From NCBI RefSeq assembly GCF_007830265.1, contig NZ_VLKE01000001.1:4526001-4590000 (forward strand): DNA of 64,000 nucleotides. Direction: 5' to 3'. Numbering within the stretch: position 1 is the first letter of the stretch; the number at the start of each line of letters is the position of its first letter. The translations under genes and the position numbers were made by a program. Below are positions 29,396-57,402 of the stretch, one piece after another. Below the pieces are notes generated by a model, which ran no database searches, was not told the DNA's origin, and worked only from the letters and a program-made list of their open reading frames with translations. The stretch comes from Micromonospora olivasterospora. Its GTDB lineage: Bacteria > Actinomycetota > Actinomycetes > Mycobacteriales > Micromonosporaceae.

Positions 29396-30227
29396 CTCGT
29401 TCCTCCTGGAGGTTCGCCCAGCCCAGCAGCTCCCGCAGCTCGGCCGGCACGCAGCGGTGGTCGGTGCCCAGCTCGGCGCGGGCGACCTCGACGGCGGTGG
29501 GCAGGTGCACCGACTCGCCGTGCAGCTCCGGCCACTGCCGCCGGATCCGGGCGGTGCCCCCGAACGTCGGGTCCTCGTCGGCCAGCACCATCGGGTCGCC
29601 GTAGACGGCGGGCTCGCAGCCGGCCGCGATGCCGTAGAAGATGGCGCTGGTCAACCGGTTGGAGGCCACCCGCCGGTGCCGGCGCAGCTCGGTGAGCTGC
29701 CTGTCGAGGAACAGCGGGTCGGTGTCCCTCCACCAGTGGCCCCGGTAGCCGTGGCAGATCACCCGGAATCCGGCCCGCTCGTAGCGCCGGCGCACCCGGC
29801 GCATCCCGTACTCGTGCCAGTACAGGCAGACGGTGACGGGGCCGGGCTCGGTGTCGCGGATCCGGGCGATCAGCGCGCGGTGGTCGCCGCGCACGTGCTG
29901 GCCCTCCCAGCCGTGGAACGGGTACCAGATGGTGCCCTCCCGCTCCTCGGCGGGCGGGTCGTCGGGGCGCAGCGCCAGCAGGTACGCGAACGGCGCGCCG
30001 ATCACCACCACGTTGCGCCGCCCCACCGACCAGGCCCGCCGCCGGGTCTGCTCGGACCACAGCAGGCTCGGCGTCCCCGCCACGTACGGGTGGCCGGGGG
30101 CGAGGCCGTCGCCGATGTTCCAGCCGTGCTGGACGTACCCGTTGATCCGCGGTGGGTGCCCGTCGCCCAGCCCGCAGTAGCGGGCCAGCACGTGCGCGTG
30201 GCCGTAGAAGTGGTTCGCGTGGTGCAT
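29385..30227 (-). CDS. Unidentified protein of the pseudaminic acid operon, candidate glycosyltransferase
   Basis: 280 residues from ATG 30227 (GAGGGG 5 bases upstream), ending 11 bases inside the methyltransferase gene. No family recognised with certainty. Features: an N-terminal His-rich stretch MHHANHFYGHAHVLARYCG, then INGYVQHGWNIGDG, and later WYPFHGWEG, VCLYWHEYGM and RLTSAIFYGIAAGCEPAVYG. The QHGW and GxEP-like patterns and the late LTSAIFYGIAAG resemble the end of GT-B-fold surface-polysaccharide transferases. Lying between pseC and pseF, it is a candidate transferase for the nonulosonic acid; this is inference from position. Confidence 0.6.
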   Translation of the reverse strand: MHHANHFYGHAHVLARYCGLGDGHPPRINGYVQHGWNIGDGLAPGHPYVAGTPSLLWSEQTRRRAWSVGRRNVVVIGAPFAYLLALRPDDPPAEEREGTIWYPFHGWEGQHVRGDHRALIARIRDTEPGPVTVCLYWHEYGMRRVRRRYERAGFRVICHGYRGHWWRDTDPLFLDRQLTELRRHRRVASNRLTSAIFYGIAAGCEPAVYGDPMVLADEDPTFGGTARIRRQWPELHGESVHLPTAVEVARAELGTDHRCVPAELRELLGWANLQEERVDD

Positions 30228-30237
30228 GCGTGGCCCC

Positions 30238-31394
30238 TCAGACGGCGGCGCGGGCCGGGGCGGCGTGCAGCGCGGCGGCCAGCGCGTCGACGACCCGCTC
30301 CTGGTCGGCGTCGGTGAGGTCGGGGAACAGCGGCAGGGAGAGCTGCTCGGCGTAGAACGCCTCGGCCACCGGGCAGGAGCCGCGCCGGTAGCCCAGGTCG
30401 GCGAAGGCGGGATGCCAGTGCGCGGGGATGTAGTTGACCTGCACCCCGATCCCGGCGGCCCGCATCGCGTCGTACACCGCGCGGCGGCGGCCCTCGTGGA
30501 CCCGGATCGGGTACAGGTGCCAGGCCGGCCTCGCCCAGTCCCGCCGGCCCGGAATCGACATCCCGGGCAGGTCGGCCAGGGCCTCGTCGTACCGGGCGAC
30601 CAGTTCGGCGCGGCGGGCGAGGAAGCCGCCCAGCCGGCGCAGCTGGCTGCGGCCCAGCGCGCAGAGCACGTCGGGCAGCCGGTAGTTGAGCCCGAACCCG
30701 TGCACCTCCTGGTGCCAGCCGCCCTCGTCCGGCCAGCGCTGCTCGGCGCGGTCGCGGACCAGGCCGTGGTTGCGGAACCGGCGGCCCGGCCCAGCAGCGC
30801 CGGGTCCGCGGCGGAGACCGCGCCGCCCTCGGCGGTGGTCAGGTTCTTGGTCGGGAAGAACGAGAACGTGGTCAGGTCGGCCAGCGAACCCACCGGCCGG
30901 CCGTGGTAGGTGGCGCCGATCGAGTGCGCCGCGTCGGCGAGCAGCAGCGTGTCCGTGCCGGCCAGGGCCGCGCGCAGGGCGTCGTAGTCGGCCGGGTGAC
31001 CGGCGTAGTCGACCGCCGCCACCACCCGCGTCCGGTCGGTGAGCGCGGCGGACAGGGCCGCCGGGTCCAGCGTGAACGTCTCCGGCTCCACGTCGGCGAA
31101 GACCACCTTCGCGCCCAGCGCCACGGCCGTGCTGGCCGTCGCCACGAACGTCATCGGCGGCACCACCACCTCGTCGCCGGGGCCGACCCCGGCCGCCGCG
31201 TACCCGACGTGCAGCGCCGCGGTGCCGTTGGACACGGCCGCGCAGCCGGCCCCGCCGGTCCAGGCCGCGAGGTCGGTCTCGAACGCGTCGACCTGCGGGC
31301 CGGTGGTGAGCCAGTCGCTGCGCAGGGCCGCCACCACGGCGGCGACGTCGTCGTCGGTGACGGACTGCCGCCCGTACGGCAGCGGCGCCGTCAC
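30238..31394 (-). CDS. pseC: UDP-4-amino-sugar aminotransferase (PseC-like, DegT/DnrJ/EryC1), frame interrupted
   Basis: PLP enzyme that puts the 4-amino group on the UDP-4-keto sugar made by PseB. GTG 31394 overlaps the pseB stop as GTGA. LPYGRQSVTDDDVAAVVAAL and SDWLTTGPQVDAFE open the family; the PLP Lys is in FSFFPTKNLTTAEGG near residue 180. At about 30770-30800 coding character moves one frame to RFRNHGLVRDRAEQRW and GFGLNYRLPDVLCALG, both expected next in this family, and continues to the TGA at 30238. This is consistent with one base missing near GGGCCGGGCC. About 385 residues in total. Confidence 0.85.
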
Positions 31395-32374
31395 GCCGCG
31401 ACCCCGAGCATGTCGCGCAGCCCCTCCACGCTGAGCCACTCGTCGTTGCTGTCCGACTGGTACGCGAACCCGTCCGGCACCGGCTCGCAGTCGGCGGGCG
31501 GCTGGTAGCCCCAGCCGGCGATCGTCGGCTGCACGATGAACCGGTCCGGCAGGCGCACGGTCCGGCGGCTGTCGTCCGGCGCGATCATCTCCTCGTGCAG
31601 CTTCTCGCCCGGCCGGATGCCGACCTCGTGGGTCGTCGCGTCCGGGGCGACCGCCGCCACCAGGTCCATGATCCGCATGCTCGGGATGCGCGGCACGAAC
31701 AGCTCGCCGCCGCGCATCTGGTCGAACGAGTCGACGACGAACCGGACCGCCTGGTCGAGCGTGATCCAGAACCGGGTCATCCGCTTGTCGGTGACCGGCA
31801 GGCTGCGGCCCTCGGCGGCGAGCCGGCGGAACAACGGCACCACCGAGCCGCGGCTGCCGACGACGTTGCCGTAGCGCACCACCGCGAACCGGGTCGGGTG
31901 GTGGGCGGCGTAGTGGTTGGCCGAGACGAAGAGCTTGTCGCCGACGAGCTTCGTGGCGCCGTACAGGTTGATCGGGCTGGACGCCTTGTCGGTGGAGAGC
32001 GCGATGACCTTCCGCACGCCGGCGTCGATCGCCGCGTCGACCACGTTCTGGGAGCCGGTGATGTTGGTGGCGATGAACTCCGAGGGGTTGTACTCGGCGG
32101 TGTCCACCTGCTTGAGGGCGGCGGCGTGCACCACGTACTCGACCCCGTGCATCGCCCGGGTGAGCCGCTGCCGGTCCCGGACGTCGCCGACGAACCAGCG
32201 CAGCCGCGGGTCGTCGCCGAGCTGTTGGCGCAGCTCGTACTGCTTGAGCTCGTCCCGGGAGAACACCACCACGCGGGCCGGGTCGGCCTCGGCCAGGATG
32301 TGCCGCAGGAACGTGCGGCCGAAGGAGCCGGTTCCGCCGGTGATCAGAATGGACGACCCGTTCAACTCGCTCAA
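31391..32374 (-). CDS. pseB: UDP-N-acetylglucosamine 4,6-dehydratase (inverting)
   Basis: 327 residues, extended SDR. First enzyme of pseudaminic acid synthesis: dehydrates UDP-GlcNAc at C4/C6 with C5 inversion. ILITGGTGSFGRTFLRHIL binds NADP; HAAALKQVDTAEYNP and ALSTDKASSPINLYGATKLV carry the catalytic Asp-Lys and Tyr-Lys sets that separate PseB-type enzymes from epimerases; KRMTRFWITLDQAVRFV is another family mark. TTG 32374 is the start (GGAG 7 bases upstream). A -10-like TAGCGT on this strand at 32433-32428 may give the downstream half of the operon its own promoter. Confidence 0.93.
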   Translation of the reverse strand: MSELNGSSILITGGTGSFGRTFLRHILAEADPARVVVFSRDELKQYELRQQLGDDPRLRWFVGDVRDRQRLTRAMHGVEYVVHAAALKQVDTAEYNPSEFIATNITGSQNVVDAAIDAGVRKVIALSTDKASSPINLYGATKLVGDKLFVSANHYAAHHPTRFAVVRYGNVVGSRGSVVPLFRRLAAEGRSLPVTDKRMTRFWITLDQAVRFVVDSFDQMRGGELFVPRIPSMRIMDLVAAVAPDATTHEVGIRPGEKLHEEMIAPDDSRRTVRLPDRFIVQPTIAGWGYQPPADCEPVPDGFAYQSDSNDEWLSVEGLRDMLGVAA

Positions 32375-32427
32375 CTGGTGCTCCGATGGTCGTGGTTCTC
32401 GGCCTGCCGGCCGGCGGACGGTTCGTG

Positions 32428-32433
32428 ACGCTA
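32428..32433 (-). promoter_or_regulatory. Possible -10 element for pseB and downstream genes
   Basis: TAGCGT on the minus strand, 54 bases before the pseB TTG, in the only sizeable gap (133 bases) of the pse operon. No good -35 box accompanies it. Confidence 0.35.
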
Positions 32434-32507
32434 GGCGGGGCGGGTTAACGGGCCCACGCCACCCGGTGAACGCGTACGACGCTCGCGGTGAACTGGGCCG
32501 AACCCCG

Positions 32508-33560
32508 TCAGATCAGGTCCCAGCCCAGCGGGGTGCCCCGGGGCACGTCACGGCGGAACGTGCGGCCGAGCACCCGGTCGAGGTCGGCCGGCGGCAGCCC
32601 GCCCGCCGGCCGGATCGAGCGGACGTTCTCGGCCGTCACCGGGTCGCCGGCCCGCACGTCGGCCACCACGTACAGGGAGCGGCGGAAGCGCAGTCCCTCC
32701 CGCTCGGTCGGGGTGGGGCCGACGGCCGTGGTGCCCAGCGCCGCCCAGGCCCGCTCGGACTCCACCCGCAACTCGGCCAGCTCGGCCGGCTCCAGCGAGA
32801 AGTCCGAGTCCACGCCGCCGTCGGCCCGGCGCAGCGTGACGTGCTTCTCGATCAGGCAGGCCCCGAGCGCGACCGCGGCGACCGGCACCCCGATGCCGGG
32901 GGTGTGGTCGGAGAGCCCGACCGGCACGCCGAACGCGTCGGCGAGCACCGGCAGCCGGCGCAGGTTGCTGTCCTGCGGCGGCGCCGGGTAGGAGGCCGTG
33001 CAGGCCAGCAGGACGATGCCGCCGGCGCCGCCGTCGCGCGCGGCCCGGACCGCCGCGTCGATCTCGCCGATCGTGGCCATCCCGGTGGAGACGACCAGCG
33101 GCCTGCCGGTGCTGGCCACCAGCCGGATCAGCGGCAGGTCCACCAGTTCCGACGAGGCGATCTTGTACGCCGGGACGTCCAACTCCTCCAGCAGCCGCAC
33201 CGCCGTGGCGTCGAACGGCGAGGAGAAGACCGTGAGACCGTGGCGCCGGGCCCGCTCGAAGATCGGCTCGTGCCACTCGTACGGGGTGTGCGCCCGCTCG
33301 AAGAGCTGGTAGAGCCGCTCGCCGCCCCACAGTTCGTGCCCGCCGGAGATCCGGAAATCCGGCGCGTCCACGTCGATGGTGATCGTGTCCGGCGTGAACG
33401 TCTGAAGCTTGAGCGCGTGCGCCCCGCTCGCCGCGACCGCGTCCACGATCGCCAGGGCCCGGTCCAGGTCGCCGTTGTGGTTGCCCGACATCTCGGCCAC
33501 CACGAAGGGCCGCTGCCCGGCGCCGACCGCGTGCGGCCCGATCCTCACTGTCGCCGTCAT
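32508..33560 (-). CDS. pseI: Pseudaminic acid synthase (NeuB family)
   Basis: 350 residues. Condenses phosphoenolpyruvate with the released diacetamido-trideoxy-altrose to give pseudaminic acid. VVAEMSGNHNGDLDRALAIV, ALKLQTFTPDTITID, GHELWGGERLYQLFERA and TPYEWHEPIF match PseI-type NeuB proteins; YKIASSELVDLPLI, VSTGMATIGEIDAAV and LLACTASYPAP complete the TIM barrel, and the final ~60 residues (SLYVVADVRAGDPVTAENVR) are the SAF antifreeze-like domain. ATG 33560 overlaps the pseH stop (ATGA). It is intact. Confidence 0.92.
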   Translation of the reverse strand: MTATVRIGPHAVGAGQRPFVVAEMSGNHNGDLDRALAIVDAVAASGAHALKLQTFTPDTITIDVDAPDFRISGGHELWGGERLYQLFERAHTPYEWHEPIFERARRHGLTVFSSPFDATAVRLLEELDVPAYKIASSELVDLPLIRLVASTGRPLVVSTGMATIGEIDAAVRAARDGGAGGIVLLACTASYPAPPQDSNLRRLPVLADAFGVPVGLSDHTPGIGVPVAAVALGACLIEKHVTLRRADGGVDSDFSLEPAELAELRVESERAWAALGTTAVGPTPTEREGLRFRRSLYVVADVRAGDPVTAENVRSIRPAGGLPPADLDRVLGRTFRRDVPRGTPLGWDLI

Positions 33561-34081
33561 GGTCTCCTGCTCAGTTCCGTCCACACCACCCGGTGCGGAG
33601 TGCCGTCGACGTCCCGCTCGTAGCGCCGGACGATCTCGAATCCGAAGCGCCGGTGCAGTGCCAGCACCGGTCGGTTGGTGGCCAGCGTCTCCCCGCCGAG
33701 GGTCCGCGCGCCGAGGCTGTCGAAGGCGTACGCGATGGCCGCCCGCTCCAGCGACAGCCACGCCGGCATGAGCCGCCCGCGCGCGTCCAGCCCCTCGACG
33801 TCGAGGTAGAAGCCCCAGGTCAGCGCCTTTTCCCGGCTGGCCACCCCGGAGAAGGTGACCACTCCGCAGGGCTCGCCCCGGTGCTCGTGCACCAGCAGCC
33901 GCCGGTCCGGGTCGGCGCGTACCACCGCCCACCAGGCGGCGTGCTCGGCCGGGCTGATCTCGTGCCGGGTGAGGCTGACCTCGCGGACCCGCGGGTGGTT
34001 GCGCCAGCGCAGGATCGTCGCCAGGTCGGCGTCCCCGGCCGGGCGGAGGCGGTCGGCGGCCCGGGTCGCGGTCGCGCTCAT
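33557..34081 (-). CDS. pseH: GNAT acetyltransferase of pseudaminic acid synthesis (PseH-like)
   Basis: 174 residues. Expected to N-acetylate UDP-4-amino-4,6-dideoxy-N-acetyl-altrosamine. RLRPAGDADLATILRWRNHP is the usual opening; ISPAEHAAWWAVVRADPDRR and the acetyl-CoA-binding core GVVTFSGVASREKALTWGFYL, given here only as core strands, with a late ATNRPVLALHRRFGFEIV are typical of PseH. The arrangement ATGA at both ends (with the upstream GT2 and downstream pseI) shows tight translational coupling within the operon. Confidence 0.85.
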   Translation of the reverse strand: MSATATRAADRLRPAGDADLATILRWRNHPRVREVSLTRHEISPAEHAAWWAVVRADPDRRLLVHEHRGEPCGVVTFSGVASREKALTWGFYLDVEGLDARGRLMPAWLSLERAAIAYAFDSLGARTLGGETLATNRPVLALHRRFGFEIVRRYERDVDGTPHRVVWTELSRRP

Positions 34082-48401: not shown

Positions 48402-49541
48402 ATGTCTGAGGTCATCGCGCTCGGTCAACCCACGGTCGGTGACGCCGAACTCGCCGCCATCGCCGAGGTCTTCGCCTCCGGCTGGCTCGCGGGGTCCGGT
48501 CCCACCAGCCGCCGGTTCGAGGAGCGGTTCGCCGCCGCCGTCGGCACCCGCCACGCCCTCGCCACCAGCAACTGCGGCTCGGCGCTGCACCTCGCGCTGC
48601 TCACCCTCGGAGTCAACCCGGGTGACGAGGTGATCGTCGGGGACTACACGTTCCCCGCCACCGGCCACTCGGTGCTGTGGACGGGGGCCAAGCCCGTCTT
48701 CGCCGACGTCCGTCCGGACACCTGGACCGTCGACCCGGCCGCGGTCGAGGCGGCGGTCACCCCGCGCACGGTCGGCATCATCGCCGTGGACGCGTTCGGC
48801 CAGCCGGCCGACTACGACGAGCTGCGGGCCATCGCCGACCGGCACGGGCTGTTCCTGGTCGAGGACGCCGCCTGCTCGGCGGGCGCGACGTACAAGGGGC
48901 GCCCCGCCGGCAGCCTGGCCGACGTGGCCACGTTCAGCTTCCACGGCCGCAAGGGGATCACGGCGGGGGAGGGCGGCGCGTACGTCACGGACCGCGACGA
49001 TCTCGCCGCGCACGCCCGCAAGCTGCACACCTACGGGGTGGAGGGGGCGCTCACCCGGGCCGAGCTGTCCCACCTGCCGATCCCGACCTTCACCGAGCTG
49101 GGCTACAACTACCGGCTCTCCGACGTGGCGGCGGCCATCATGATCGCGCAGCTCGACCGCCTGCCGGACCTGCTCGTGGCGAAGCGGCGCACCGCCGCCC
49201 GCTACGGCGAGCTGCTCAAGGACCACGAGCTGATCACCACGCCGTACGAGGCGCCCGACCGCGAGCACCCGTGGCAGTCGTACGTGGTCACTATCGATCC
49301 CTCGGTGGACCGCGGCGCGGTCGCCCTCGAGTTGCGTCAGCGCGGCGTGCAGTGCACCTTCGGGACGTACGCCTCGCACGTCCAGCCGCTCTACGGCCAG
49401 ACGGCGCCCTGCCCGGTGTCCGCGGACCTGTTCGCCCGGCACCTGGCCATCCCGATGCACGCCAACCTCACCGACGCCCAGGTCGAGACCGTCGCCGCCA
49501 CCCTGGTCGACGTCGTCAACAGCGCGGCCACCGGCCGCTGA
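48402..49541 (+). CDS. DegT/DnrJ/EryC1-family sugar aminotransferase
   Basis: 379 residues. PLP-dependent aminotransferase acting on a nucleotide-linked keto-sugar. LGQPTVGDAELAAIAEVFAS, the acceptor region SNCGSALHLALLTLG, GDYTFPATGHSVLWTG, VDAFGQPADYDEL, DAACSAGATYKGR, the PLP Lys in FSFHGRKGITAGEGG near residue 187, and GYNYRLSDVAAAI are all typical. It heads a plus-strand operon with an epimerase, GT4 and the LuxC/LuxE cassette. The product could be an amino sugar, or the ketone or aldehyde of a chain made by the cassette; the sequence does not decide. Confidence 0.88.
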   Translation: MSEVIALGQPTVGDAELAAIAEVFASGWLAGSGPTSRRFEERFAAAVGTRHALATSNCGSALHLALLTLGVNPGDEVIVGDYTFPATGHSVLWTGAKPVFADVRPDTWTVDPAAVEAAVTPRTVGIIAVDAFGQPADYDELRAIADRHGLFLVEDAACSAGATYKGRPAGSLADVATFSFHGRKGITAGEGGAYVTDRDDLAAHARKLHTYGVEGALTRAELSHLPIPTFTELGYNYRLSDVAAAIMIAQLDRLPDLLVAKRRTAARYGELLKDHELITTPYEAPDREHPWQSYVVTIDPSVDRGAVALELRQRGVQCTFGTYASHVQPLYGQTAPCPVSADLFARHLAIPMHANLTDAQVETVAATLVDVVNSAATGR

Positions 49542-49566
49542 TCCCCCAGGAAGGACACTGTCCGAC

Positions 49567-50499
49567 ATGTCGAAGCAGACCGTCTTCATCACCGGAGGCG
49601 CGGGCTTCATCGGCCTGCACGTGGTGCCGTTGCTGTTGGAGAAGGGCTACCGGGTCCGCATCTTCGACAACATGTTCCGCGGCGACCGGGACCGGGTCGC
49701 CGAGCTGGTGGCCACCGGCGACGTGGAGCTGATCGACCAGGACGTCCGCTACGGCGGCGCCGTGCACGCGGCCATGAAGGGCTGCGAGTACGTCATCCAC
49801 CTCGCCGCCGTCTCGATCAACAAGAGCCAGGCCGACCCGTACGAGTCGATCGACATCAACATGGTCGGCAACCACAACGTCTTCGCGGCCGCCGCCGACC
49901 ACGGCGTAAAGCGGCTGGTGTTCGCGTCCTCCGCCTCGGTGTACGGCGACCCGAAGAAGCTGCCGATGCACGAGGACGACCGCCTCGACCCGCTCACCCC
50001 GTACTGCATCTCGAAGCGGGCCGGCGAGGACCTGCTCGGCTTCTACCAGCGCAGCAAGGGCCTGAACTGGATCGCCCTGCGCTTCTTCAACGTGTACGGC
50101 CCGGGCCAGAAGCCGACCGCGTACTACACCTCAGTGATCAACCACTTCGTGAAGCGGCTGAAGAACGGCGAGCCGCCGGTCATCGACGGCAAGGGCGAGC
50201 AGTCGATGGACTTCATCCACGTGCACGACATCGCGCGCTCGGTCGTCGCCGCGCTGGAGGCGGAGCAGGGCAACGTGCCGGTCAACATCGGCACGGGCAT
50301 CGACACCTCCGTCGCCACCCTGGCCGAGATCCTGATCAAGGCGGTCGGGGTCGACGTCGAGCCGCAGTTCAACCCGCGTGAGGTGCTGGTCAGCCGCCGG
50401 GCGGCGGACATCACCCGGGCCCGCGAGGTGCTCGGGTGGGAGCCGACCATCGCGGTCGAGGACGGGATGACCGACCTGATCAAGACCGAGGTGGCGTGA
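49567..50499 (+). CDS. NAD-dependent epimerase/dehydratase
   Basis: 310 residues, ATG 49567, 25 bases after the aminotransferase stop. Extended SDR: VFITGGAGFIGLHVVPLLL binds NAD, VIHLAAVSINKSQADPYESI and FASSASVYGDPKKL, with the catalytic Tyr-Lys in TPYCISKRAGEDLLG, then FFNVYGPGQKP. This pattern fits UDP-glucose/GlcNAc 4-epimerases or related sugar dehydratases. It would supply a sugar nucleotide for the next GT4. Intact. Confidence 0.9.
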   Translation: MSKQTVFITGGAGFIGLHVVPLLLEKGYRVRIFDNMFRGDRDRVAELVATGDVELIDQDVRYGGAVHAAMKGCEYVIHLAAVSINKSQADPYESIDINMVGNHNVFAAAADHGVKRLVFASSASVYGDPKKLPMHEDDRLDPLTPYCISKRAGEDLLGFYQRSKGLNWIALRFFNVYGPGQKPTAYYTSVINHFVKRLKNGEPPVIDGKGEQSMDFIHVHDIARSVVAALEAEQGNVPVNIGTGIDTSVATLAEILIKAVGVDVEPQFNPREVLVSRRAADITRAREVLGWEPTIAVEDGMTDLIKTEVA

Positions 50500-50731
50500 C
50501 CCAGCCGCCGTCCGCCGGGGGCCCGTCGTCGCACGGGCTCCCGGCGAACCCGTTTCTCCGGCAGGGCCGGGCCCCGCGTCGGTCACGCACGGTTGGAGCC
50601 GTTCACCGGTCGCCGCAGCGCTGAGGTAGCGTAGGCCCCCGTCGCCATCCGGCAGATCCACCGGCCTGCCCGTACGATCCAGCGGTGGGCCCGGGCCACG
50701 CCCCCACACCGACCCGACAGGAGTTACCGCT
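50500..50731. other. 232-base gap inside the operon
   Basis: No gene. TAGCGT near 50635-50640 is a possible -10 for the GT4 and everything after it; no matching -35 was found. The GT4 ribosome site AGGAG lies at the end. Confidence 0.4.
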
Positions 50732-51922
50732 GTGCGGATCGCGGTCGTCAACAACTTCTTCCCACCACGTCCCGGTGGGAGTTCGCACCTGGCCGCCGCC
50801 CTGGCGGAGCGGTACGCCGCGGCCGGTCACGAGGTCCTCGTCCTGACCGCCGCCTACGAGGGCGCGCCGGCGGAGGAGCAGCGGAGCGGTTACCGCGTCG
50901 TCCGGCTGCCGGCCATGCCGATGCCGAAGCTGGGCCTGTCCATCGACTTCGACATGGCCTTCGCGCTGGCCCGACCCGGCAACCTGCGCCGGGTCTCCCG
51001 GCTGCTGGCCGAGTTCAGGCCCGACGTGATCCACCAGCACGGCCAGTTCTTCGACCTGAGCTGGATCTCCGGCTGGTACGCGCGTCGCCACCGGGTGCCG
51101 GTGCTGCTGTCCATCCACACCCGGCTGGAGAGCCCCGACCCGAAGTACGCCGCGCTGTTCCGGACGCTGGACCGGTTCCTGGTCAAGCCGATCATCACGC
51201 GGTTCCGCCCCCGGTATGTGATCATGGACGAGTTGGCGGCCCACTACTGCGCGGAGCGCTACGGCGCGACCACGGCGGACTTCGACTACATCCCGGTCGC
51301 CGTCGAGCCGAGCCGATTCGAGGGCACCCCGGAGACCGACGTGCGCGCCCGGCACGGCGTCGGCGACGGCCCGCTGATCGTGTCGCTGGGCCATGTGATC
51401 CCGCTGCGGGACCGGCTGGCCCTGGTCGAGGCGCTGCCGGCCGTCCTGGCGAAGCACCCGGACACCAAGGTGATGATCATCGGCCGGGTCTACTACGACG
51501 CGTTCGCCAAGCGGGCCGCGGAGCTGGGCGTCGGCCACGCGATCATCACCACCGGCGTCGTGCCGCCGGCCGACGTGCCGGCCTACTTCGCCGCCGCCGA
51601 CGTGGTGGCCCACGACCTGCAGGGCGGCGGCTTCGGCACCGCCAGCCTGGAGGCGATGGCCGCCGGGCGGGCGACGATCGGCACGGTCACCGAGACGAAC
51701 TTCCCGGCCGTGCGGCTGCGCAACTGGGAGAACTTCGTGCTGGTCCGGCCGAACGCCCCGGCCGACCTCGCGGACGCGGTGATCCGGCTGCTGGACGAGC
51801 CGGAGGAGCGGGAGTGGATCGCCAAGCGGCAGCGCGATCTCGTGTACTCGCACTTCACCCTCGACGTGGTCACCCGCCAGCATCTGGACGTCTTCGCCCG
51901 GATGGTGGGGGAGCGGGCGTGA
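50732..51922 (+). CDS. GT4-family glycosyltransferase
   Basis: 396 residues from GTG 50732 (AGGAG 9 bases upstream). GT-B retaining transferase: MRIAVVNNFFPPRPGGSSH, then VIHQHGQFFDLSWISGWYAR and VPVLLSIHTRLE of the acceptor side, LIVSLGHVIPLRDRLALVEA, and the C-terminal GGFGTASLEAMAAGRATIG in which the usual ExE glutamate pair is reduced to F-G-T-A-S-L-E. It probably adds a sugar to the lipid-linked acceptor. Its stop overlaps the next gene's GTG (GTGA). Confidence 0.88.
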   Translation: MRIAVVNNFFPPRPGGSSHLAAALAERYAAAGHEVLVLTAAYEGAPAEEQRSGYRVVRLPAMPMPKLGLSIDFDMAFALARPGNLRRVSRLLAEFRPDVIHQHGQFFDLSWISGWYARRHRVPVLLSIHTRLESPDPKYAALFRTLDRFLVKPIITRFRPRYVIMDELAAHYCAERYGATTADFDYIPVAVEPSRFEGTPETDVRARHGVGDGPLIVSLGHVIPLRDRLALVEALPAVLAKHPDTKVMIIGRVYYDAFAKRAAELGVGHAIITTGVVPPADVPAYFAAADVVAHDLQGGGFGTASLEAMAAGRATIGTVTETNFPAVRLRNWENFVLVRPNAPADLADAVIRLLDEPEEREWIAKRQRDLVYSHFTLDVVTRQHLDVFARMVGERA

Positions 51923-52551
51923 GCATGTTCTCCGACGACGAGCGCAGCAACCGGCTGCGTGCCGGCATCGTGAACGACTTCGTCGGCGGCTTCCTCAACG
52001 ACGTCGAGCGGGCCCGCTTCCTCGGCCTGCCCGAGACCACCCGGATCCGGGAGCGTACGAAGATCGTCAGCCCGGAGAACCTGGTCATGGGCGAGCACTG
52101 CTGGATCGGGGAGAACACCGTCCTGGACGCGAGCGGCGGCCTGGAGATCGGCGACCACACCAGCATCGGGCTGAACTGCCTGGTGTTCACGCACTCCAGC
52201 TGGCTGGCGAACATGACGCTGGAGAACTACTCCGGCAGCGACCTCATCGAGCGCAAGCCGGTCAAGATCGGCAAGGGTTGCTTCATCGGGGGCAACAGCG
52301 TGATCATGATGGGTGTCACCATCGGTGACTGCGCGACCGTCAGCCCCCTGTCGGTGGTGACCAAGGACGTTCCCGCCTACAGTCTGGTGTCGGGCAACCC
52401 CGCCCGCGTGTTCCAGCGCTACGACCAGGAGCACATCAAGGCCGAGGCGGAGCGGGTCCGCGCCGAGAACGCCGCCCGGCGGGCCGCGGCACAGGCGCGC
52501 GGAGAGGCACCCGTCTGGGGCTCGCCCGCGGTGCGCCGTGACGGGCAGTGA
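51919..52551 (+). CDS. Hexapeptide-repeat (LbH) acyl/acetyltransferase
   Basis: 210 residues from GTG 51919, overlapping the GT4 stop; ATG 51925 is a possible alternative. Left-handed beta-helix repeats run from about 50 to 150 (IVSPENLVMGEHCWIGENTV, LEIGDHTSIGLNCLVF, KIGKGCFIGGNSVIMMGVTI, ATVSPLSVVTKDVPAYS), with VSGNPARVFQRY closing the domain. LbH acetyltransferases of sugars use acetyl- or acyl-CoA and, sometimes, acyl-ACP. An ACP gene follows 34 bases later, so acyl-ACP as donor is possible. The C-terminal ~40 residues are a charged helix. Confidence 0.88.
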   Translation: MSMFSDDERSNRLRAGIVNDFVGGFLNDVERARFLGLPETTRIRERTKIVSPENLVMGEHCWIGENTVLDASGGLEIGDHTSIGLNCLVFTHSSWLANMTLENYSGSDLIERKPVKIGKGCFIGGNSVIMMGVTIGDCATVSPLSVVTKDVPAYSLVSGNPARVFQRYDQEHIKAEAERVRAENAARRAAAQARGEAPVWGSPAVRRDGQ

Positions 52552-52585
52552 CCATCCCTTAGCGATCAACGGAGTAAATGCGATC

Positions 52586-52825
52586 ATGACTCTCACCGAC
52601 CGCCTGCGTACCGTCTTCGTGGACGCCCTGGAGCTGCCCGAGGGCACCGACGTGGAGAGCCTCACCTACCGCGGCATCGAGCAGTGGGACTCCCTCGGCC
52701 ACATGACCCTGGTCGGCGCGATCGAGGACGAGTTCGACGTCCAGCTGGAGACCGAGCAGGTCATCGACATGAGCAGCTTCAAGGTCGCCCTCGACATGCT
52801 GCGAGGTCTCGGCGTCGATGAGTGA
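52586..52825 (+). CDS. Acyl carrier protein
   Basis: 79 residues from ATG 52586. The 4'-phosphopantetheine Ser is in QWDSLGHMTLVGAIE near residue 36, in the DSL context; EDEFDVQLETEQVIDM follows. Length and charge fit a stand-alone ACP. It is tightly coupled: its stop region overlaps the SDR start by 8 bases. It most likely carries the acyl group processed by the SDR and loaded by the AMP-ligase. Confidence 0.9.
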   Translation: MTLTDRLRTVFVDALELPEGTDVESLTYRGIEQWDSLGHMTLVGAIEDEFDVQLETEQVIDMSSFKVALDMLRGLGVDE

Positions 52826-53573
52826 GCTGACCGGTCGGGTGGCGCTCGTCACGGGCGGCACCCGGGGCATCGGCCTGGCCACCGCCCGCGCCCTCGTCGA
52901 GGCCGGTGCCACGGTCGTCGTCACGGGCCGCGACGCCGACCGGGCCGAGGCCGTGGCCAAGGAGTTCGGCGGGCACGGCCTGGGCCTGGAGGCGGCGGAC
53001 TTCGACTCGGTCGGCGCGGCGGTCAAGCAGGTGGCCGCCGAGCACGGCGGGTTGGACGTGCTGGTCGCCAACGCGGGAATCATGGAGAGCGGTCTGCTCG
53101 GCATGGTCCGCGCGGACGACGTCCGCCGCACCCTGGACGTCAACGTGGCGGGCGCGGTCGCGGCCGTCCAGGCGGCGAGCCGGGCGATGGCCCGCAGGCG
53201 CAGGGCGGCCGACGGCACCGAGCGGCGGGGCGGCTCGATCGTGCTGCTCGCCTCGGTCGTCGGCACGTACGGCGCGGCCGGCCAGTCCGTGTACGCGGCG
53301 TCGAAGGCCGCCGTGGCCGCGCTGGCCCGCTCCGCCGCCCGCGAGCTGGGCCCCCGGGGCATCCGGGTCAACGCCGTGGCGCCCGGGGTCATCCGCACCG
53401 ACCTCACCGCCGGGCTGCCGGCCGAGGTGCTGGACCGGCAGGCGGCGGCCGCCGCGCTCGGTCGTCTCGGTGACCCCGAGGAGGTGGCGGACGTGATCCG
53501 GTTCCTGGCCGGCGACGCGGCCAGGTACGTGACGGGCCAGGTGCTCGGCGTCGACGGAGGGCTGGTTCCGTGA
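52818..53573 (+). CDS. Short-chain dehydrogenase/reductase (FabG-like)
   Basis: 251 residues. Classical SDR: VALVTGGTRGIGLATARALV binds NAD(P), DVLVANAGIMESGLLG, SIVLLASVVGTYGAAGQSVY with the catalytic Ser, then YAASKAAVAALARSAARELG with Tyr and Lys, and GIRVNAVAPGVIRTDLT. The sequence resembles beta-ketoacyl-ACP reductases. Next to an ACP and an acyl-ACP ligase, it probably reduces a 3-keto acyl group to the 3-hydroxy form. The overlap with both neighbours is 8 bases and GTGA. Confidence 0.9.
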   Translation: MSELTGRVALVTGGTRGIGLATARALVEAGATVVVTGRDADRAEAVAKEFGGHGLGLEAADFDSVGAAVKQVAAEHGGLDVLVANAGIMESGLLGMVRADDVRRTLDVNVAGAVAAVQAASRAMARRRRAADGTERRGGSIVLLASVVGTYGAAGQSVYAASKAAVAALARSAARELGPRGIRVNAVAPGVIRTDLTAGLPAEVLDRQAAAAALGRLGDPEEVADVIRFLAGDAARYVTGQVLGVDGGLVP

Positions 53574-54991
53574 ACCTGGTGGCCCCGTCCGCCCGGCTGA
53601 TCGACGCCGCCACCGGCGAGGTCCTCGGCGGCGCCGACCTGGCCGCCGAGGTGGAACGGCACGCCGCCGCGTACGGCGCGGTGCCACCCGGGGTGGTCTT
53701 CGCCCGCAGCGGTACCTCGGTGCCCGCCGTGCTGCGGTACGCCGGCGCGCTGGCCGCCGACCGCCCGGTGGCCCTGCTCGACCCGGGCCTGGAGCCGGGC
53801 GTGCTCGCCGACTTCGTGCGTCGGTTCGAGCCGGCCGTCGTGGTCGGCCTCGCCGAGGGCGGCGCCGGGGCCAGCCCGGGGGAGCGGCCGAAGCAGTACC
53901 GCGAGGTCGACGACCCGGCCCTGGGCCCGGTCTGGGTCCGCGAGCGCCCCTCGGCGGATCAGCCGCACCCGGACCTCGCGGTGCTGCTGGCCACCTCCGG
54001 CTCCACCGGCGACCCCAAGTTCGTCCGGCTCTCCCGCACGGCCGTCGGGTCGAACGCCGCCGCGATCGCGCGGGCGCTGGCCATCGGGCCGGACGAGATC
54101 GCCCCGACCAGCCTGCCGCTGTACTACAGCTTCGGCATGTCCGTGCTGAACAGCCACCTGGCCGCCGGGGCGACCGTGCTGGTGGTCGACGGCGGGGTGC
54201 TGGCCCGCGAGTTCTGGCAGGCCGTGCAGGCCCACGGCGCGACGTCGCTGGCCGGGGTGCCGTACAACTACGAGATGCTGCACCGGATCCGGTGGAGCCC
54301 GGCGAAGTACCCGTCGCTGCGCACGCTGACCCAGGCGGGCGGCAAGTTGCGCGACGAGATGGTCCTCGCCTTCCACGAGAAGATCGCCGCGGTGGGCGGC
54401 CGGTTCCACGTCATGTGGGGCTGCACCGAGGCGGCACCCCGGATGAGCACACTGCCGGCCGACGCGCTGCCCGAGCGGGTCGGCTCGGTCGGCCCGGCGC
54501 TGGACGGCGGGTCGTTCACCGTCCTCGGCCCCGACGGGGCGGAGACCGACCGTCCCGGCGTGGTCGGCGAGCTGGTCTACCGCGGCCCGAACGTGATGAT
54601 GGGGTACGCCGAGAGCTCGGCCGACCTGACCCGCGGCGACGAGCAGGGCGGGGTGTTGCGCACCGGCGACCTCGGCCACCTCGACTCCGACGGCTTCGTC
54701 TGGCTGCGCGGCCGGCTCAAGCGGTTCGGCAAGATCTTCGGCATCCGGGTGAACCTGCACGACATCGAGGAGATGGCCCGCGACCAGGGGCCGGTCGTGG
54801 CGGTCTCCGGCCCGGACAGGGTCGTCGTGTTCGTCGAGGGGATCACCGACGACGACGCGAAGGCGCTCGCCGGTCGGCTGTCGGAGCGGCTCAAGCTGCA
54901 CCGGTCCGGCTTCGACGTCCGTACCGTCGAGCGGTTGCCGCAGCTGCCGAACGGCAAGATCGATTACCGCTCCCTGGAGGCGCTGGTATGA
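53570..54991 (+). CDS. AMP-dependent acyl-ACP/CoA ligase
   Basis: 473 residues from GTG 53570. Adenylation signature LLATSGSTGDPKFVRLSRTA near residues 140-159, IAPTSLPLYYSFGMSVLN, MWGCTEAAPRMSTL in the acyl pocket, RTGDLGHLDSDGFVWLRGRL-type hinge and the C-terminal Lys in LPNGKIDYRSL. It activates an acid as acyl-AMP, probably for the adjacent ACP. A second AMP-ligase of the window (at 1-1118) is not close in sequence. Overlap with LuxE-like gene is ATGA. Confidence 0.9.
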   Translation: MNLVAPSARLIDAATGEVLGGADLAAEVERHAAAYGAVPPGVVFARSGTSVPAVLRYAGALAADRPVALLDPGLEPGVLADFVRRFEPAVVVGLAEGGAGASPGERPKQYREVDDPALGPVWVRERPSADQPHPDLAVLLATSGSTGDPKFVRLSRTAVGSNAAAIARALAIGPDEIAPTSLPLYYSFGMSVLNSHLAAGATVLVVDGGVLAREFWQAVQAHGATSLAGVPYNYEMLHRIRWSPAKYPSLRTLTQAGGKLRDEMVLAFHEKIAAVGGRFHVMWGCTEAAPRMSTLPADALPERVGSVGPALDGGSFTVLGPDGAETDRPGVVGELVYRGPNVMMGYAESSADLTRGDEQGGVLRTGDLGHLDSDGFVWLRGRLKRFGKIFGIRVNLHDIEEMARDQGPVVAVSGPDRVVVFVEGITDDDAKALAGRLSERLKLHRSGFDVRTVERLPQLPNGKIDYRSLEALV

Positions 54992-56037
54992 CCCTGTTCA
55001 CCCTCGACCAGGCGGCGCGCGAGGCGAAGCTGCTGCCCGAGCTGGTCGAGCTGACGGAGCACCACCGGGCCAACAGCCCGGAGTACGCCCGGCTCCTCGC
55101 CTCCCTGGGGCACCTGCCCGGCCGCCGGTACGACCGGGTCGCCGACCTGCCCTGGCTGCCGGTGCGCCTGTTCAAGCACCATGCCCTCAAGAGCATCGGA
55201 GCCGACGAGGTCTTCAAGGTGCTCACCTCCTCGGGCACCACCGGTGACGTGAGCCGGATCTTCCTCGACAAGGAAGCCGCCGGCGTCCAGCAGAAGATGC
55301 TCTCCGCCACGCTGGGCACGGTGATCGGGTCGAAGCGGCTGCCGATGCTGCTGGTCGACACGAAGGCGCTGTTCAAGAACCGGCAGTCGTTCTCCGCGCG
55401 GGGCGCCGGGGTGCTCGGCCTGATGAACTTCGGCCGCGACCACACCTTCGTCCTCGACGAGCACGACCAGCCCGACCCGGACGCGGTGCGCGCCTTCCTC
55501 GACAAGCACGGCGACCAGCCGTTCCTGATCTTCGGCTTCACGTTCATGACCTGGCTCTACCTCTACGAGCTGGCCCGGGACCACAAGCTCGACCTGAGCA
55601 ACGGCATCCTGATCCACAGCGGCGGCTGGAAGAAGCTGGTCGACCGGGCGGTGGACAACGCCGAGTTCCGCCGCCGGTTCAGCGAGGACACCGGGCTGAC
55701 CCGGATCCACAACTTCTACGGGATGGTCGAGCAGATCGGCCTGACCTTCCTGGAGGGGTCCGACGGCGGCGGCCTCTACTGCCCCGACTTCTCCGACGTC
55801 ATCGTCCGGGACCCGCGTACGTGGGAGGAGGTGCCGGTCGGCACCCCGGGCGTGGTGCAGGTGATCAGCACCCTGCCCCGGTCGTACCCCGGGCACATCC
55901 TGCTCACCGAGGACCGGGGCGTCATCCACGGCGTCGACGACGGCGTCTGGCCCGGCAAGCGGTTCTCCATCCTGGGCCGGCTGCCCCGGGCCGAGGCGCG
56001 CGGGTGCAGCGACACGTTCGCGGAGGCGGCGGCATGA
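54988..56037 (+). CDS. luxE: LuxE-like acyl-protein synthetase
   Basis: 349 residues from ATG 54988. The LuxE family activates a fatty acid as acyl-AMP and hands it to LuxC in luciferase operons. Present: NSPEYARLLASLGHLPGR, LPWLPVRLFKHHALKSI, adenylate-binding SSGTTGDVSRI near residue 81, FGFTFMTWLYLYEL, IHSGGWKKLVDRAVDNAEF and HNFYGMVEQIGLTFLEG. No luxA or luxB is nearby. The stop is joined to an 80-base insertion, then luxC. Together with luxC it should make an aldehyde from an acyl group. Confidence 0.88.
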   Translation: MTLFTLDQAAREAKLLPELVELTEHHRANSPEYARLLASLGHLPGRRYDRVADLPWLPVRLFKHHALKSIGADEVFKVLTSSGTTGDVSRIFLDKEAAGVQQKMLSATLGTVIGSKRLPMLLVDTKALFKNRQSFSARGAGVLGLMNFGRDHTFVLDEHDQPDPDAVRAFLDKHGDQPFLIFGFTFMTWLYLYELARDHKLDLSNGILIHSGGWKKLVDRAVDNAEFRRRFSEDTGLTRIHNFYGMVEQIGLTFLEGSDGGGLYCPDFSDVIVRDPRTWEEVPVGTPGVVQVISTLPRSYPGHILLTEDRGVIHGVDDGVWPGKRFSILGRLPRAEARGCSDTFAEAAA

Positions 56038-56120
56038 GCGAGCGCAGCGAGCGAATCATCGGGCACAGCGCCGAGGTGGCTCATGCCGGTGCCGAGCGCA
56101 GGGAGGCGGCGGCATGAGCG
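56022..56120. repeat. 19-bp direct repeats flanking an 80-base insertion between luxE and luxC
   Basis: GGAGGCGGCGGCATGAGCG occurs at 56022-56040 and again at 56102-56120. Each copy contains an ATGA, so the luxE stop sits in the first and the luxC start in the second. Without the insert, luxE and luxC would be joined by one ATGA overlap like the other genes in this operon. Confidence 0.85.
56034..56117 (+). CDS. 27-codon ORF inside the luxE-luxC insertion
   Basis: ATG 56034 overlaps the luxE stop, and the TGA at 56115-56117 overlaps the luxC start. It would encode MSERSERIIGHSAEVAHAG plus AERREAAA. From memory, not checked, MSERSER-type short frames recur in Micromonosporaceae genomes, so this is probably a repeated intergenic element and not a gene with its own product. 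Its open frame may keep luxC translation coupled to luxE. Confidence 0.35.
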   Translation: MSERSERIIGHSAEVAHAGAERREAAA

Positions 56121-57352
56121 GCAAGGTGATCGAGCGGTTCCCGGCGGGCGGCGCGATCGGCGTCGACGACCTGGTCGCCGCGCTGCGCGCGGCCCCGGCC
56201 GGCGGGCCGCTGACCGTCGGCGACGACCGGGTGGTGGAGTTCCTCGTGGCGTTCGCCCGGCGGCTGCTGCGGCCGGCGGTCGCCCGCCGGTACCCGGAGC
56301 TGGCCTCCCTCGGGTTCTTCCTCCGCCGGGGCGAGATCGCCAAGACGCTCGACCGGGTCGGTGACGAGCCGGGGCAGCTCCGCTTCCCCCGGGGGCTGGT
56401 CTTCCACGTCCCGCCGGCCAACGTCGACACCATCTTCGTGTACTCCTGGGCGCTGTCCGCGCTGGCCGGCAACGCCAACGTGGTCCGGATCTCGTCCCGG
56501 TCGGCCGGCGCGGCCGACGCGGTGCTGGACGCGCTCAACGACACCCTCGCCGACGCCGACGAGGCGGTGCGGCAGAGCCAGCGGCTGGTCACGTACGGCC
56601 GGGACGACGCGGTGACCGCCGCGCTGTCGGCCGCCGCCGACCTGCGGGTGATCTGGGGCGGCGACCGGTCCGTCACCGAGATCCGCCGGCACCCGCTCGC
56701 GCCGCACGCCCGGGACCTGACGTTCCCGGACCGCTCCTCGTTCACGGTGATCAGCGTGGCCGGCTGGCTGGCCGCCGACGAGCGGGACCGCGACGCCGCC
56801 GCGCTCGGCTTCTACAACGACTCGTACTGGTTCGACCAGGCGGCCTGCGCCTCGCCCCGTACGGTGTACTGGGTCGGCGACGCGGCCGCGGCCGAGACGG
56901 CCCGCGCGGACCTGATGGCCCGGCTCCGGGCGGTGCTGGACGCCAAGCGGCCCGAGATCGACGCCGCCATGGCGGTCGAGAAGCGGGTCGCCACGTACGG
57001 CCTGGCCATCGAGGGAGCGGCCACCGCCATCCACTTCGACGGCAACGACCTGGCGACGGTCGACCTGGCCGAGCCGGGCGGCATCCCGCGTCGCTGGCTC
57101 GGCGTCGGGACGTTCCCGCAGGCCCGGGTCGACACGCTCGCGGACCTCGCGCCGGTGGTGGTCCGCCGGGACCAGACCGTGACGCACTTCGGGTTCTCCG
57201 CCGACGACCTGGTGGCCTTCGCCCGCACGCTCGGCGGCCGGGGGGTGGACCGGATCGTTCCGGTCGGCGACGCGCTCAACTTCGCCGCCACCTGGGACGG
57301 GTACGACCTGATGCGCGAGTTCACCCGGATCACCACCGTGACCACCCGCTGA
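56114..57352 (+). CDS. luxC: LuxC-like acyl-protein/acyl-CoA reductase
   Basis: 412 residues, ATG 56114. An NADPH-dependent acyl reductase of the aldehyde dehydrogenase fold: RYPELASLGFFLRRGEIAK, GLVFHVPPANVDTIFVYSWA, NANVVRISSRSAGAADAVL, IWGGDRSVTEIRRHPLAP, and the acyl-binding catalytic Cys in FDQAACASPRTVYWVG near residue 246. In luminescent bacteria LuxC and LuxE make long-chain aldehyde; here they lie in a surface-glycan locus, so the aldehyde is probably an intermediate in decoration. A 19-bp-stem terminator follows. Confidence 0.9.
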   Translation: MSGKVIERFPAGGAIGVDDLVAALRAAPAGGPLTVGDDRVVEFLVAFARRLLRPAVARRYPELASLGFFLRRGEIAKTLDRVGDEPGQLRFPRGLVFHVPPANVDTIFVYSWALSALAGNANVVRISSRSAGAADAVLDALNDTLADADEAVRQSQRLVTYGRDDAVTAALSAAADLRVIWGGDRSVTEIRRHPLAPHARDLTFPDRSSFTVISVAGWLAADERDRDAAALGFYNDSYWFDQAACASPRTVYWVGDAAAAETARADLMARLRAVLDAKRPEIDAAMAVEKRVATYGLAIEGAATAIHFDGNDLATVDLAEPGGIPRRWLGVGTFPQARVDTLADLAPVVVRRDQTVTHFGFSADDLVAFARTLGGRGVDRIVPVGDALNFAATWDGYDLMREFTRITTVTTR

Positions 57353-57359
57353 CGGCCGC

Positions 57360-57402
57360 ACGCGGAAGGGGCCCGGTCAAACCGACCGGGCCCCTTCCGC
57401 GT
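57360..57402. terminator. Strong bidirectional terminator
   Basis: Perfect 19-bp stem: 57360-57378 pairs with 57384-57402 around an AAACC loop. It separates the convergent luxC and flippase-like genes. Confidence 0.9.

What the first reader, a model, noticed from the sequence alone, without database searches (positions are those of the whole stretch)
48402..57352. LuxC/LuxE aldehyde-forming cassette inside a surface-glycan operon, with no luciferase
One plus-strand operon joins a sugar aminotransferase, epimerase, GT4, LbH acyltransferase, ACP, FabG-like SDR, AMP-ligase, LuxE-like and LuxC-like proteins, nearly all with overlapping stops and starts. No luxA, luxB or other luciferase gene is present. 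Known: LuxE and LuxC turn an acyl group into an aldehyde. Seen: intact adenylation motifs and the LuxC catalytic Cys. Inferred: the ACP, SDR and ligase build a 3-hydroxy or other acyl chain, LuxE/LuxC reduce it, and the aldehyde is aminated or attached to a sugar as an uncommon polymer decoration. This could be an undescribed modification pathway.
Basis: partly seen in the sequence, partly recalled or inferred. Interest (0 to 1): 0.78.

Follow-up and report, generated by a model that had tools for sequence, protein, structure and literature searches.

The report
LuxE/LuxC cassette for sugar decoration
A soil actinomycete carries, inside its cell-wall-polymer genes, a five-gene cassette that includes two enzymes best known from glowing bacteria; here they most likely help make a small hydroxy-acid that is attached to a wall sugar, by a scheme already partly known from other bacterial surface sugars.

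Summary
LuxE and LuxC are real but distant from the light-emitting enzymes; no luciferase was recognised. The core ACP–SDR–AMP-ligase–LuxE–LuxC recurs in several phyla, and the same order is in print for Aeromonas flagellin-glycosylation islands, read there as 'fatty acid synthesis'. Its parts resemble the Vibrio cholerae O1 tetronate genes, which supply 2,4-dihydroxybutyrate to an amino sugar. In the window's genus the cassette sits either inside the pseudaminic-acid block (7 of 7 genomes read of that type) or, as here, beside an aminotransferase, epimerase, GT4 and LbH acyltransferase. Most likely LuxE/LuxC/SDR reduce one carboxylate of a small diacid to an alcohol, ligase and ACP activate the hydroxy-acid, and an LbH or GNAT enzyme puts it on an amino sugar; the aldehyde is an intermediate, not the decoration. 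An Aeromonas strain with the cassette carries a 376.14 Da pseudaminic acid and an unexplained 102 Da unit; both fit dihydroxybutyryl, though not uniquely. Substrate and product are inferred.

The parts
48402..49541 (+). DegT-family sugar aminotransferase; nearest solved relatives are ArnB-type and perosamine synthases
   Evidence: Pfam PF01041 354 bits; PDB 8sng, 3bn1
49567..50499 (+). NAD-dependent sugar epimerase (GalE-like; SSASVYG and YCISK in the sequence, recalled as epimerase-type motifs)
   Evidence: PF01370 188 bits; many of the PDB hits are UDP-glucose 4-epimerases
50732..51922 (+). GT4 glycosyltransferase
   Evidence: PF00534/PF13579
51925..52551 (+). left-handed-beta-helix (hexapeptide) acyltransferase, proposed to transfer the acyl group to the amino sugar
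   Evidence: PF00132/PF14602; LbH acetyltransferases in PDB
52586..52825 (+). acyl carrier protein with WDSLGHM phosphopantetheine site
   Evidence: PF00550 20.0 bits, cut-off 20.8; Ser invariant 36 of 36
52818..53573 (+). FabG-like SDR, proposed to reduce the LuxC-made aldehyde to an alcohol
   Evidence: PF13561 202 bits; Ser-Tyr-Lys 25 of 25
53570..54991 (+). AMP-forming acyl ligase, proposed to load the acid on the ACP
   Evidence: PF00501 138 bits; top PDB relatives an NRPS adenylation protein (3wvn) and oxalate-CoA ligase; malonyl-, feruloyl- and fatty-acyl-CoA ligases follow
54988..56037 (+). LuxE-like acyl-protein synthetase with the C-terminal acyl-accepting Cys (RGCSD)
   Evidence: PF04443 151 bits; 7xc6_E; model pLDDT 88.9, PaaK/HCL-type fold
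56114..57352 (+). LuxC-like acyl-thioester reductase with catalytic Cys (DQAACASP)
   Evidence: PF05893 104 bits; model pLDDT 93.4, best PDB match LuxC 7xc6_A
57360..57402 (.). 19-bp perfect inverted repeat, 5-nt loop, between luxC and a convergent gene; terminator-like but without a T run
   Evidence: not listed by the terminator scan
31391..32374 (-). PseB-like UDP-sugar dehydratase of the window's pseudaminic-type block
   Evidence: PF02719 327 bits; 78% to the L071 copy that lies next to a cassette
32508..33560 (-). NeuB/PseI-like nonulosonic acid synthase
   Evidence: PF03102
33560..34060 (-). GNAT acetyltransferase (PseH-like)
   Evidence: tblastn with GNATs of the neighbour set, up to 62% identity
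26799..27530 (-). CMP-sugar cytidylyltransferase (PseF-like)
   Evidence: 86% to the L072 copy

Best explanation
The five genes ACP-SDR-ligase-LuxE-LuxC form a portable module that makes a short hydroxy-acyl thioester for N-acylating an amino sugar of the wall polymer. LuxE activates the free carboxylate of a small diacid (malate or succinate are the likeliest) as acyl-AMP and holds it on its C-terminal Cys; LuxC takes it on its Cys and reduces it to a semialdehyde; the SDR reduces that to an alcohol, giving 2,4-dihydroxybutyrate (3-deoxytetronate) or 4-hydroxybutyrate; the AMP ligase loads the acid on the ACP, before or after the reduction; the LbH enzyme moves it to the amino group installed by the DegT enzyme; the GT4 adds the sugar to the polymer. 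Shown: the genes, their intact catalytic residues, the conserved order and company. Inferred: substrate, order of steps, product, acceptor sugar.
For: Order: ACP-SDR-ligase-LuxE-LuxC in 65 of 126 loci, SDR-ACP-ligase-LuxE-LuxC in 14 more (recount, other genes between ignored); strictly contiguous in 42 of 117 loci with crude gene calls. Natural LuxE-LuxC fusions exist. Company: a GNAT- or LbH-cluster gene lies within two genes of the cassette in 52 of 117 loci; of 68 upstream genes scanned 19 hit GNAT and 11 Hexapep. Two or more of NeuB, PseF, PseB, PseG are in 43 of 117 loci (cluster u20, which matches the window's PseG region, counted as PseG). In the genus the cassette lies between pseB and neuB in 6 of 6 further genomes read of one type (gap 4.9-5.1 kb) and in L072. 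In the window's type, 8 of 8 further genomes, and L040, keep DegT, Epim, GT4 and an LbH with the cassette, and 6 of 6 with the block in view have pseB and neuB only 119-725 bp apart. Precedent: V. cholerae O1 VC0248-VC0252 make tetronate that acylates perosamine (PMC3441752 passages); [quoted passage not shown] RfbN has a LuxE domain (PMC4772473 passages). Mass: A. piscicola AH-3, whose island has the cassette, carries a 376.14 Da Pse derivative and an unknown 102 Da unit (PMC7874193 passages; PMC4284686 passage); Pse with acetyl plus dihydroxybutyryl is 376.148 and dihydroxybutyryl 102.032. 4-Hydroxybutyryl amides on Pse are known (PMC9912281 passage).
Against: No assay of any cassette enzyme appears in the passages I read. 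Twelve enumerated acyl combinations, mine included, give 376.148, and O-methylglyceryl also weighs 102.032. No luxE/luxC deletion in Aeromonas is in the passages read; AH-1 shows 403 Da, but one figure legend of that paper also names a 376 Da sugar, and I did not check AH-1's genes. The SDR is FabG-like and could make a 3-hydroxyacyl chain. In 35 of 117 loci no SDR lies within 5 kb of LuxE, and 13 of those have a thiamine-diphosphate enzyme, so the aldehyde may have other fates elsewhere. About half of the loci show no acyltransferase cluster beside the cassette (65 of 117). The ligase's PDB list also holds feruloyl- and fatty-acyl-CoA ligases. RfbK-RfbO were not compared by sequence. The acceptor in this window could be Pse rather than the DegT-made sugar.
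Confidence: 0.55

Rival explanations
1. One reading: LuxE/LuxC release an aldehyde that is aminated by the DegT enzyme or joined to a sugar as such.
For: A DegT aminotransferase heads the operon, and a DegT-family gene occurs in 66 loci of the neighbour set.
Against: The window's DegT matches sugar 4-aminotransferases; in Pse loci the DegT takes the place of PseC, which has a sugar substrate (recalled). It leaves the recurrent acyltransferases and the SDR unexplained.
Confidence: 0.1
2. Published reading for flagellin islands: the cassette is fatty-acid synthesis that adds a lipid ('liposugar') to the glycan.
For: Proposed in PMC7874193 and PMC4875605 (passages); ACP and FabG-like SDR fit.
Against: No ketosynthase among the nine genes; KASIII or FabZ clusters appear in only 15 of 117 loci, 11 of them with a thiamine enzyme. 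The Aeromonas Pse derivative of 376.14 Da leaves no room for a long chain. LuxE and LuxC fall far below the NCBIfam long-chain models (56.8 vs 550 and 48.7 vs 750).
Confidence: 0.13
3. LuxE/LuxC reduce the carboxylate of a uronic acid or nonulosonic acid, changing the sugar rather than its N-acyl group.
For: The cassette sits among sugar-nucleotide genes.
Against: An ACP and a ligase travel with the pair, which a sugar acid would not need; the V. cholerae precedent is an acyl acid.
Confidence: 0.08
4. The module makes 3-hydroxybutyryl or another 3-hydroxyacyl group through the SDR acting as ketoacyl-ACP reductase, and LuxE/LuxC have a side role.
For: The SDR's best NCBIfam match is a 3-oxoacyl-ACP reductase model (below cut-off); 3-hydroxybutyryl is found on several bacterial amino sugars (PMC3210612 passages).
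Against: LuxE and LuxC stay together in loci that have lost or swapped the SDR or ACP (the loci were chosen by LuxE), so a side role is unlikely.
Confidence: 0.12

Closest known systems
ACP / 3-oxoacyl-ACP reductase / AMP synthetase / luxE / luxC block of Aeromonas Group II flagellin glycosylation islands (gene types also in Enterobacteriaceae islands)
   Same: Same five gene types in the same order, beside pseudaminic-acid genes; LuxE in 73 and LuxC in 80 strains of the enterobacterial survey
   Different: Here the likely target is a Gram-positive wall polymer with teichoic-type genes; the cassette sits with DegT, epimerase, GT4 and LbH instead of among pse genes; the fgi-1 gene that follows luxC there is absent here
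Vibrio cholerae O1 tetronate genes rfbKLMNO (VC0248-VC0252)
   Same: Carrier protein, AMP ligase and LuxE-domain protein, serving N-acylation of a 4-amino sugar; DegT here is close to perosamine synthases
   Different: LuxE and LuxC are separate here; the dehydrogenase is an SDR, whereas RfbM is recalled as an iron alcohol dehydrogenase and RfbO as an LbH acetyltransferase (recalled, no call); no direct sequence comparison was made
luxCDABE fatty-acid reductase of luminous bacteria (7xc6)
   Same: Both catalytic Cys and sequence homology; LuxC fold; acid-to-aldehyde chemistry by homology
   Different: LuxC about 50 residues shorter before the matched core, far below the luminous-family cut-offs, no luciferase recognised, ACP and ligase added

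Membership tests
luminous lux operon | LuxE/LuxC score above the curated luminous-family cut-offs | tested here: not met
   56.8 of 550 and 48.7 of 750 bits
luminous lux operon | luxA and luxB in the genome | tested here: inconclusive
   None in the operon; 18 superfamily matches in the genome, no LuxA/LuxB model among the 25 of 33 NCBIfam families shown
luminous lux operon | acyl-accepting Cys of LuxE and catalytic Cys of LuxC | tested here: met
flagellin-island ACP-SDR-ligase-LuxE-LuxC cassette | five genes in that order | tested here: met
   window gene order against the order in PMC7874193
flagellin-island ACP-SDR-ligase-LuxE-LuxC cassette | pseudaminic-acid genes in the same island | tested here: met
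   Pse-type block at 25748-34060, about 14 kb before the operon; around the cassette itself in 7 related genomes
flagellin-island ACP-SDR-ligase-LuxE-LuxC cassette | fgi-1 glycosyltransferase directly downstream of luxC | tested here: not met
   next gene is a convergent LPG_synthase_TM protein
V. cholerae O1 tetronate module | carrier protein, AMP ligase and LuxE-domain protein together | tested here: met
   composition of the reference
V. cholerae O1 tetronate module | orthology of each protein to RfbK-RfbO | not tested
   the reference sequences were not fetched
V. cholerae O1 tetronate module | product is 2,4-dihydroxybutyrate on an amino sugar | not testable with these tools
   needs wall chemistry

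The most novel reading that the evidence does not exclude
ACP-SDR-ligase-LuxE-LuxC is one ancient, widely shared route to a C4 hydroxyacyl group (3-deoxytetronyl or 4-hydroxybutyryl), a carboxylate-to-alcohol reduction on a small diacid. Bacteria plug it into either a GNAT (pseudaminic acid) or an LbH enzyme (other amino sugars), which would explain the Aeromonas 376.14 and 102 Da units and predicts such an amide in actinomycete wall polymers.
Probability: 0.35. Interest if true: 0.65.

Novelty: new variant of a known kind. Interest (0 to 1): 0.5.

Why it matters
A gene set found across many phyla was read in the two flagellin papers as 'fatty acid synthesis' and is otherwise named after light production. 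If it makes a small hydroxyacyl decoration, a feature of many surface glycans and flagellins becomes readable from the genome, unexplained masses get a structure to test, and the acid-reducing LuxE/LuxC pair gains a widespread role outside bioluminescence. The genus offers a natural comparison: the same pseudaminic block with and without the cassette.

Tried and rejected
Rejected: cryptic bioluminescence. Rejected: a chance ORF cluster. Considered and lowered: long-chain lipid, aldehyde as end product, uronic acid reduction (see rivals). The idea that SDR and thiamine enzymes strictly replace each other failed: 11 of 82 loci with an SDR near LuxE also have one, against 13 of 35 without (Fisher p 0.006 on non-independent loci). 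7xc6_E, the solved LuxE, is not among the 50 rows shown by Foldseek or VIA-align for the LuxE model, which says nothing against it; the sequence match is.

Samples. All were found through LuxE. 117 of 126 entered the gene-call counts; in the other 9 no gene call was labelled LuxE. Gene calls are crude, above all in high-GC loci. In 'acyltransferase' means my GNAT and LbH clusters plus cluster c67, taken as LbH by blast label; representatives of most, not all, were scanned with Pfam. For the flank scans I passed 67 of 78 upstream genes plus the window's LbH (68), and 58 of 70 downstream genes; the rest I left out by eye as doubtful, partial or cassette genes, without a fixed rule.

In print: the paper searches were made, in an open-access library only; their listings showed no paper on this cassette in actinomycetes. 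Of the papers cited I saw passages, no whole text.
Full report
What is there. The window comes from a 7.07 Mb genome in two contigs; its LuxE and LuxC are closest to Micromonospora proteins. Nine plus-strand genes run from 48402 to 57352: DegT aminotransferase, epimerase, GT4, LbH acyltransferase, ACP, FabG-like SDR, AMP ligase, LuxE-like, LuxC-like. All have clear coding periodicity. Three of eight junctions overlap; the rest are separated by 25, 232, 2, 34 and 76 bases. A 19-bp perfect inverted repeat follows luxC, then a convergent membrane-protein gene and a second plus-strand run with DegT and Gfo/Idh genes. Upstream, on the minus strand, lie an ABC transporter pair, an IspD-SDR fusion and a CDP-glycerol-type glycerophosphotransferase, which fits a teichoic-type wall polymer (inference), and further up a pseudaminic-type block with PseB, PseC, PseF, PseG, NeuB and GNAT relatives.

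How common it is. Of 200 genomes of the family, 58 (own included) have a LuxE match; of 151 in the genus, 26 do, 24 of them strong. In 126 loci gathered through LuxE from plasmids, family genomes and named species, the order ACP-SDR-ligase-LuxE-LuxC is present in 65, and SDR-ACP-ligase-LuxE-LuxC in 14 more (recount, which ignores other genes between); in my cruder gene calls it is strictly contiguous in 42 of 117. Carriers of the first order include Deinococcus, Rheinheimera, Marinobacter, Sphingobium, Saccharibacillus, Sporosarcina and Flavobacterium. LuxE-LuxC fusions of about 710-850 residues also exist. This is a conserved cassette, not a local accident.

Its company. Clustering of neighbour genes gave NeuB in 38 loci, CMP-sugar transferases in 28 and 16, PseB-type in 35 and PseG in 27 (families). 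In five loci (L090, L093, L103, L107, L109) the order is exactly pseB-pseC-pseF-pseG-neuB-GNAT-ACP-SDR-ligase-LuxE-LuxC, with close variants in others; the Aeromonas Group II island likewise has pseH followed by ACP, oxoacyl-ACP reductase, AMP synthetase, luxE, luxC (PMC7874193, passages). The gene just upstream of the cassette is a GNAT in 19 and a hexapeptide protein in 11 of 68 scanned (window included); just downstream, 9 and 2 of 58. In 4 of those 58 the downstream gene is a lactate/malate dehydrogenase relative, a hint of a 2-hydroxy-acid that I did not follow up.

A natural comparison. In the genus the 24 strong LuxE matches fall in two groups: 10 at 86-100% identity to the window (own included) and 14 at 65-69%. 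I read 6 further genomes of the second group and L072: in all 7 the cassette lies in the pseudaminic block, and in the 6 measured it fills a 4.9-5.1 kb space between pseB and neuB. I read the other 9 genomes of the first group (8, L040): all keep DegT, epimerase, GT4 and an LbH protein with the five genes. In L181, L183 and L187 the LbH match is only 45-46% over about 110 residues, and in L181 and L183 ACP and SDR lie on the other strand. In 6 of 6 first-group genomes with the pse block in view, pseB and neuB are only 119-725 bp apart; one (L192) keeps a lone ACP-like gene there. The module thus serves two acyltransferase settings.

What it makes. In V. cholerae O1, genes VC0248-VC0252 make tetronate, which acylates the amino group of perosamine (PMC3441752, passages). 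[quoted passage not shown] The original proposal (Morona 1995) I know only from citations and recall; that it starts from malate, that RfbM is an iron alcohol dehydrogenase and that RfbO is an LbH acetyltransferase are recalled. Reduction of one carboxylate of malate gives 2,4-dihydroxybutyrate; of succinate, 4-hydroxybutyrate. 4-Hydroxybutyryl amides occur on Pse and on an amino-dideoxygalactose (PMC9912281 and PMC3210612, passages).

Masses. A. piscicola AH-3, with the cassette in its island, carries a Pse derivative of 376.14 Da and an unknown 102 Da unit (PMC7874193, passages; also PMC4284686 and PMC8625153, passages). Acetyl plus dihydroxybutyryl on Pse gives 376.148 and the dihydroxybutyryl unit is 102.032. 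Twelve listed acyl combinations share 376.148 and one other acyl shares 102.032, so this is consistent, not proof. A. hydrophila AH-1 shows 403 Da instead, though a figure legend of that paper also names a 376 Da sugar (PMC4691044, passages); it is a single-monosaccharide strain, and the Aeromonas paper ties such strains to the small Group I and III islands. I did not check AH-1's genes.

Verdict. The enzymology is not shown.

Noticed in passing
window 25748-34060 (-): Pseudaminic-type block; the PseC-like (about 30238-31394) and PseG-like (about 25748-26796) genes each read in two frames in this assembly: frameshifts or sequence errors.
   Followed up: partly
L036, L102, L104, L106, L120, L123, L132, L133, L136, L142, L147, L151, L154-L157: LuxE/LuxC loci with a split transketolase pair (only one half labelled in L156); eight others (L117, L118, L130, L138, L143, L146, L150, L153) have an acetolactate-synthase-like ThDP enzyme. 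The aldehyde may be condensed rather than reduced there.
   Followed up: partly
gene downstream of LuxC in 4 of 58 scanned: Lactate/malate dehydrogenase relatives directly after the cassette, and PEP mutase relatives in 3 of 58.
   Followed up: no
L192:10895-11098: Lone ACP-like gene between pseB and neuB (63% identity to the window's ACP), possibly a remnant of a lost cassette.
   Followed up: no
window 56022-56120: A sequence of about 19 bases around a start codon occurs twice, 80 bases apart, between luxE and luxC. By tblastn bounds, L183, L185, L191 and L194 have luxC almost directly after luxE, while L181, L189 and L193 have a spacing like the window's.
   Followed up: no
window 29388-30227 and 27527-29395 (-): Two proteins conserved in the pse blocks of related genomes; the second had no Pfam match, the first was scanned only inside a longer ORF.
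   Followed up: no
L038 (Streptomyces plasmid): Distant LuxE-LuxC pair after a DUF692 gene, with no glycan gene annotated nearby.
   Followed up: no
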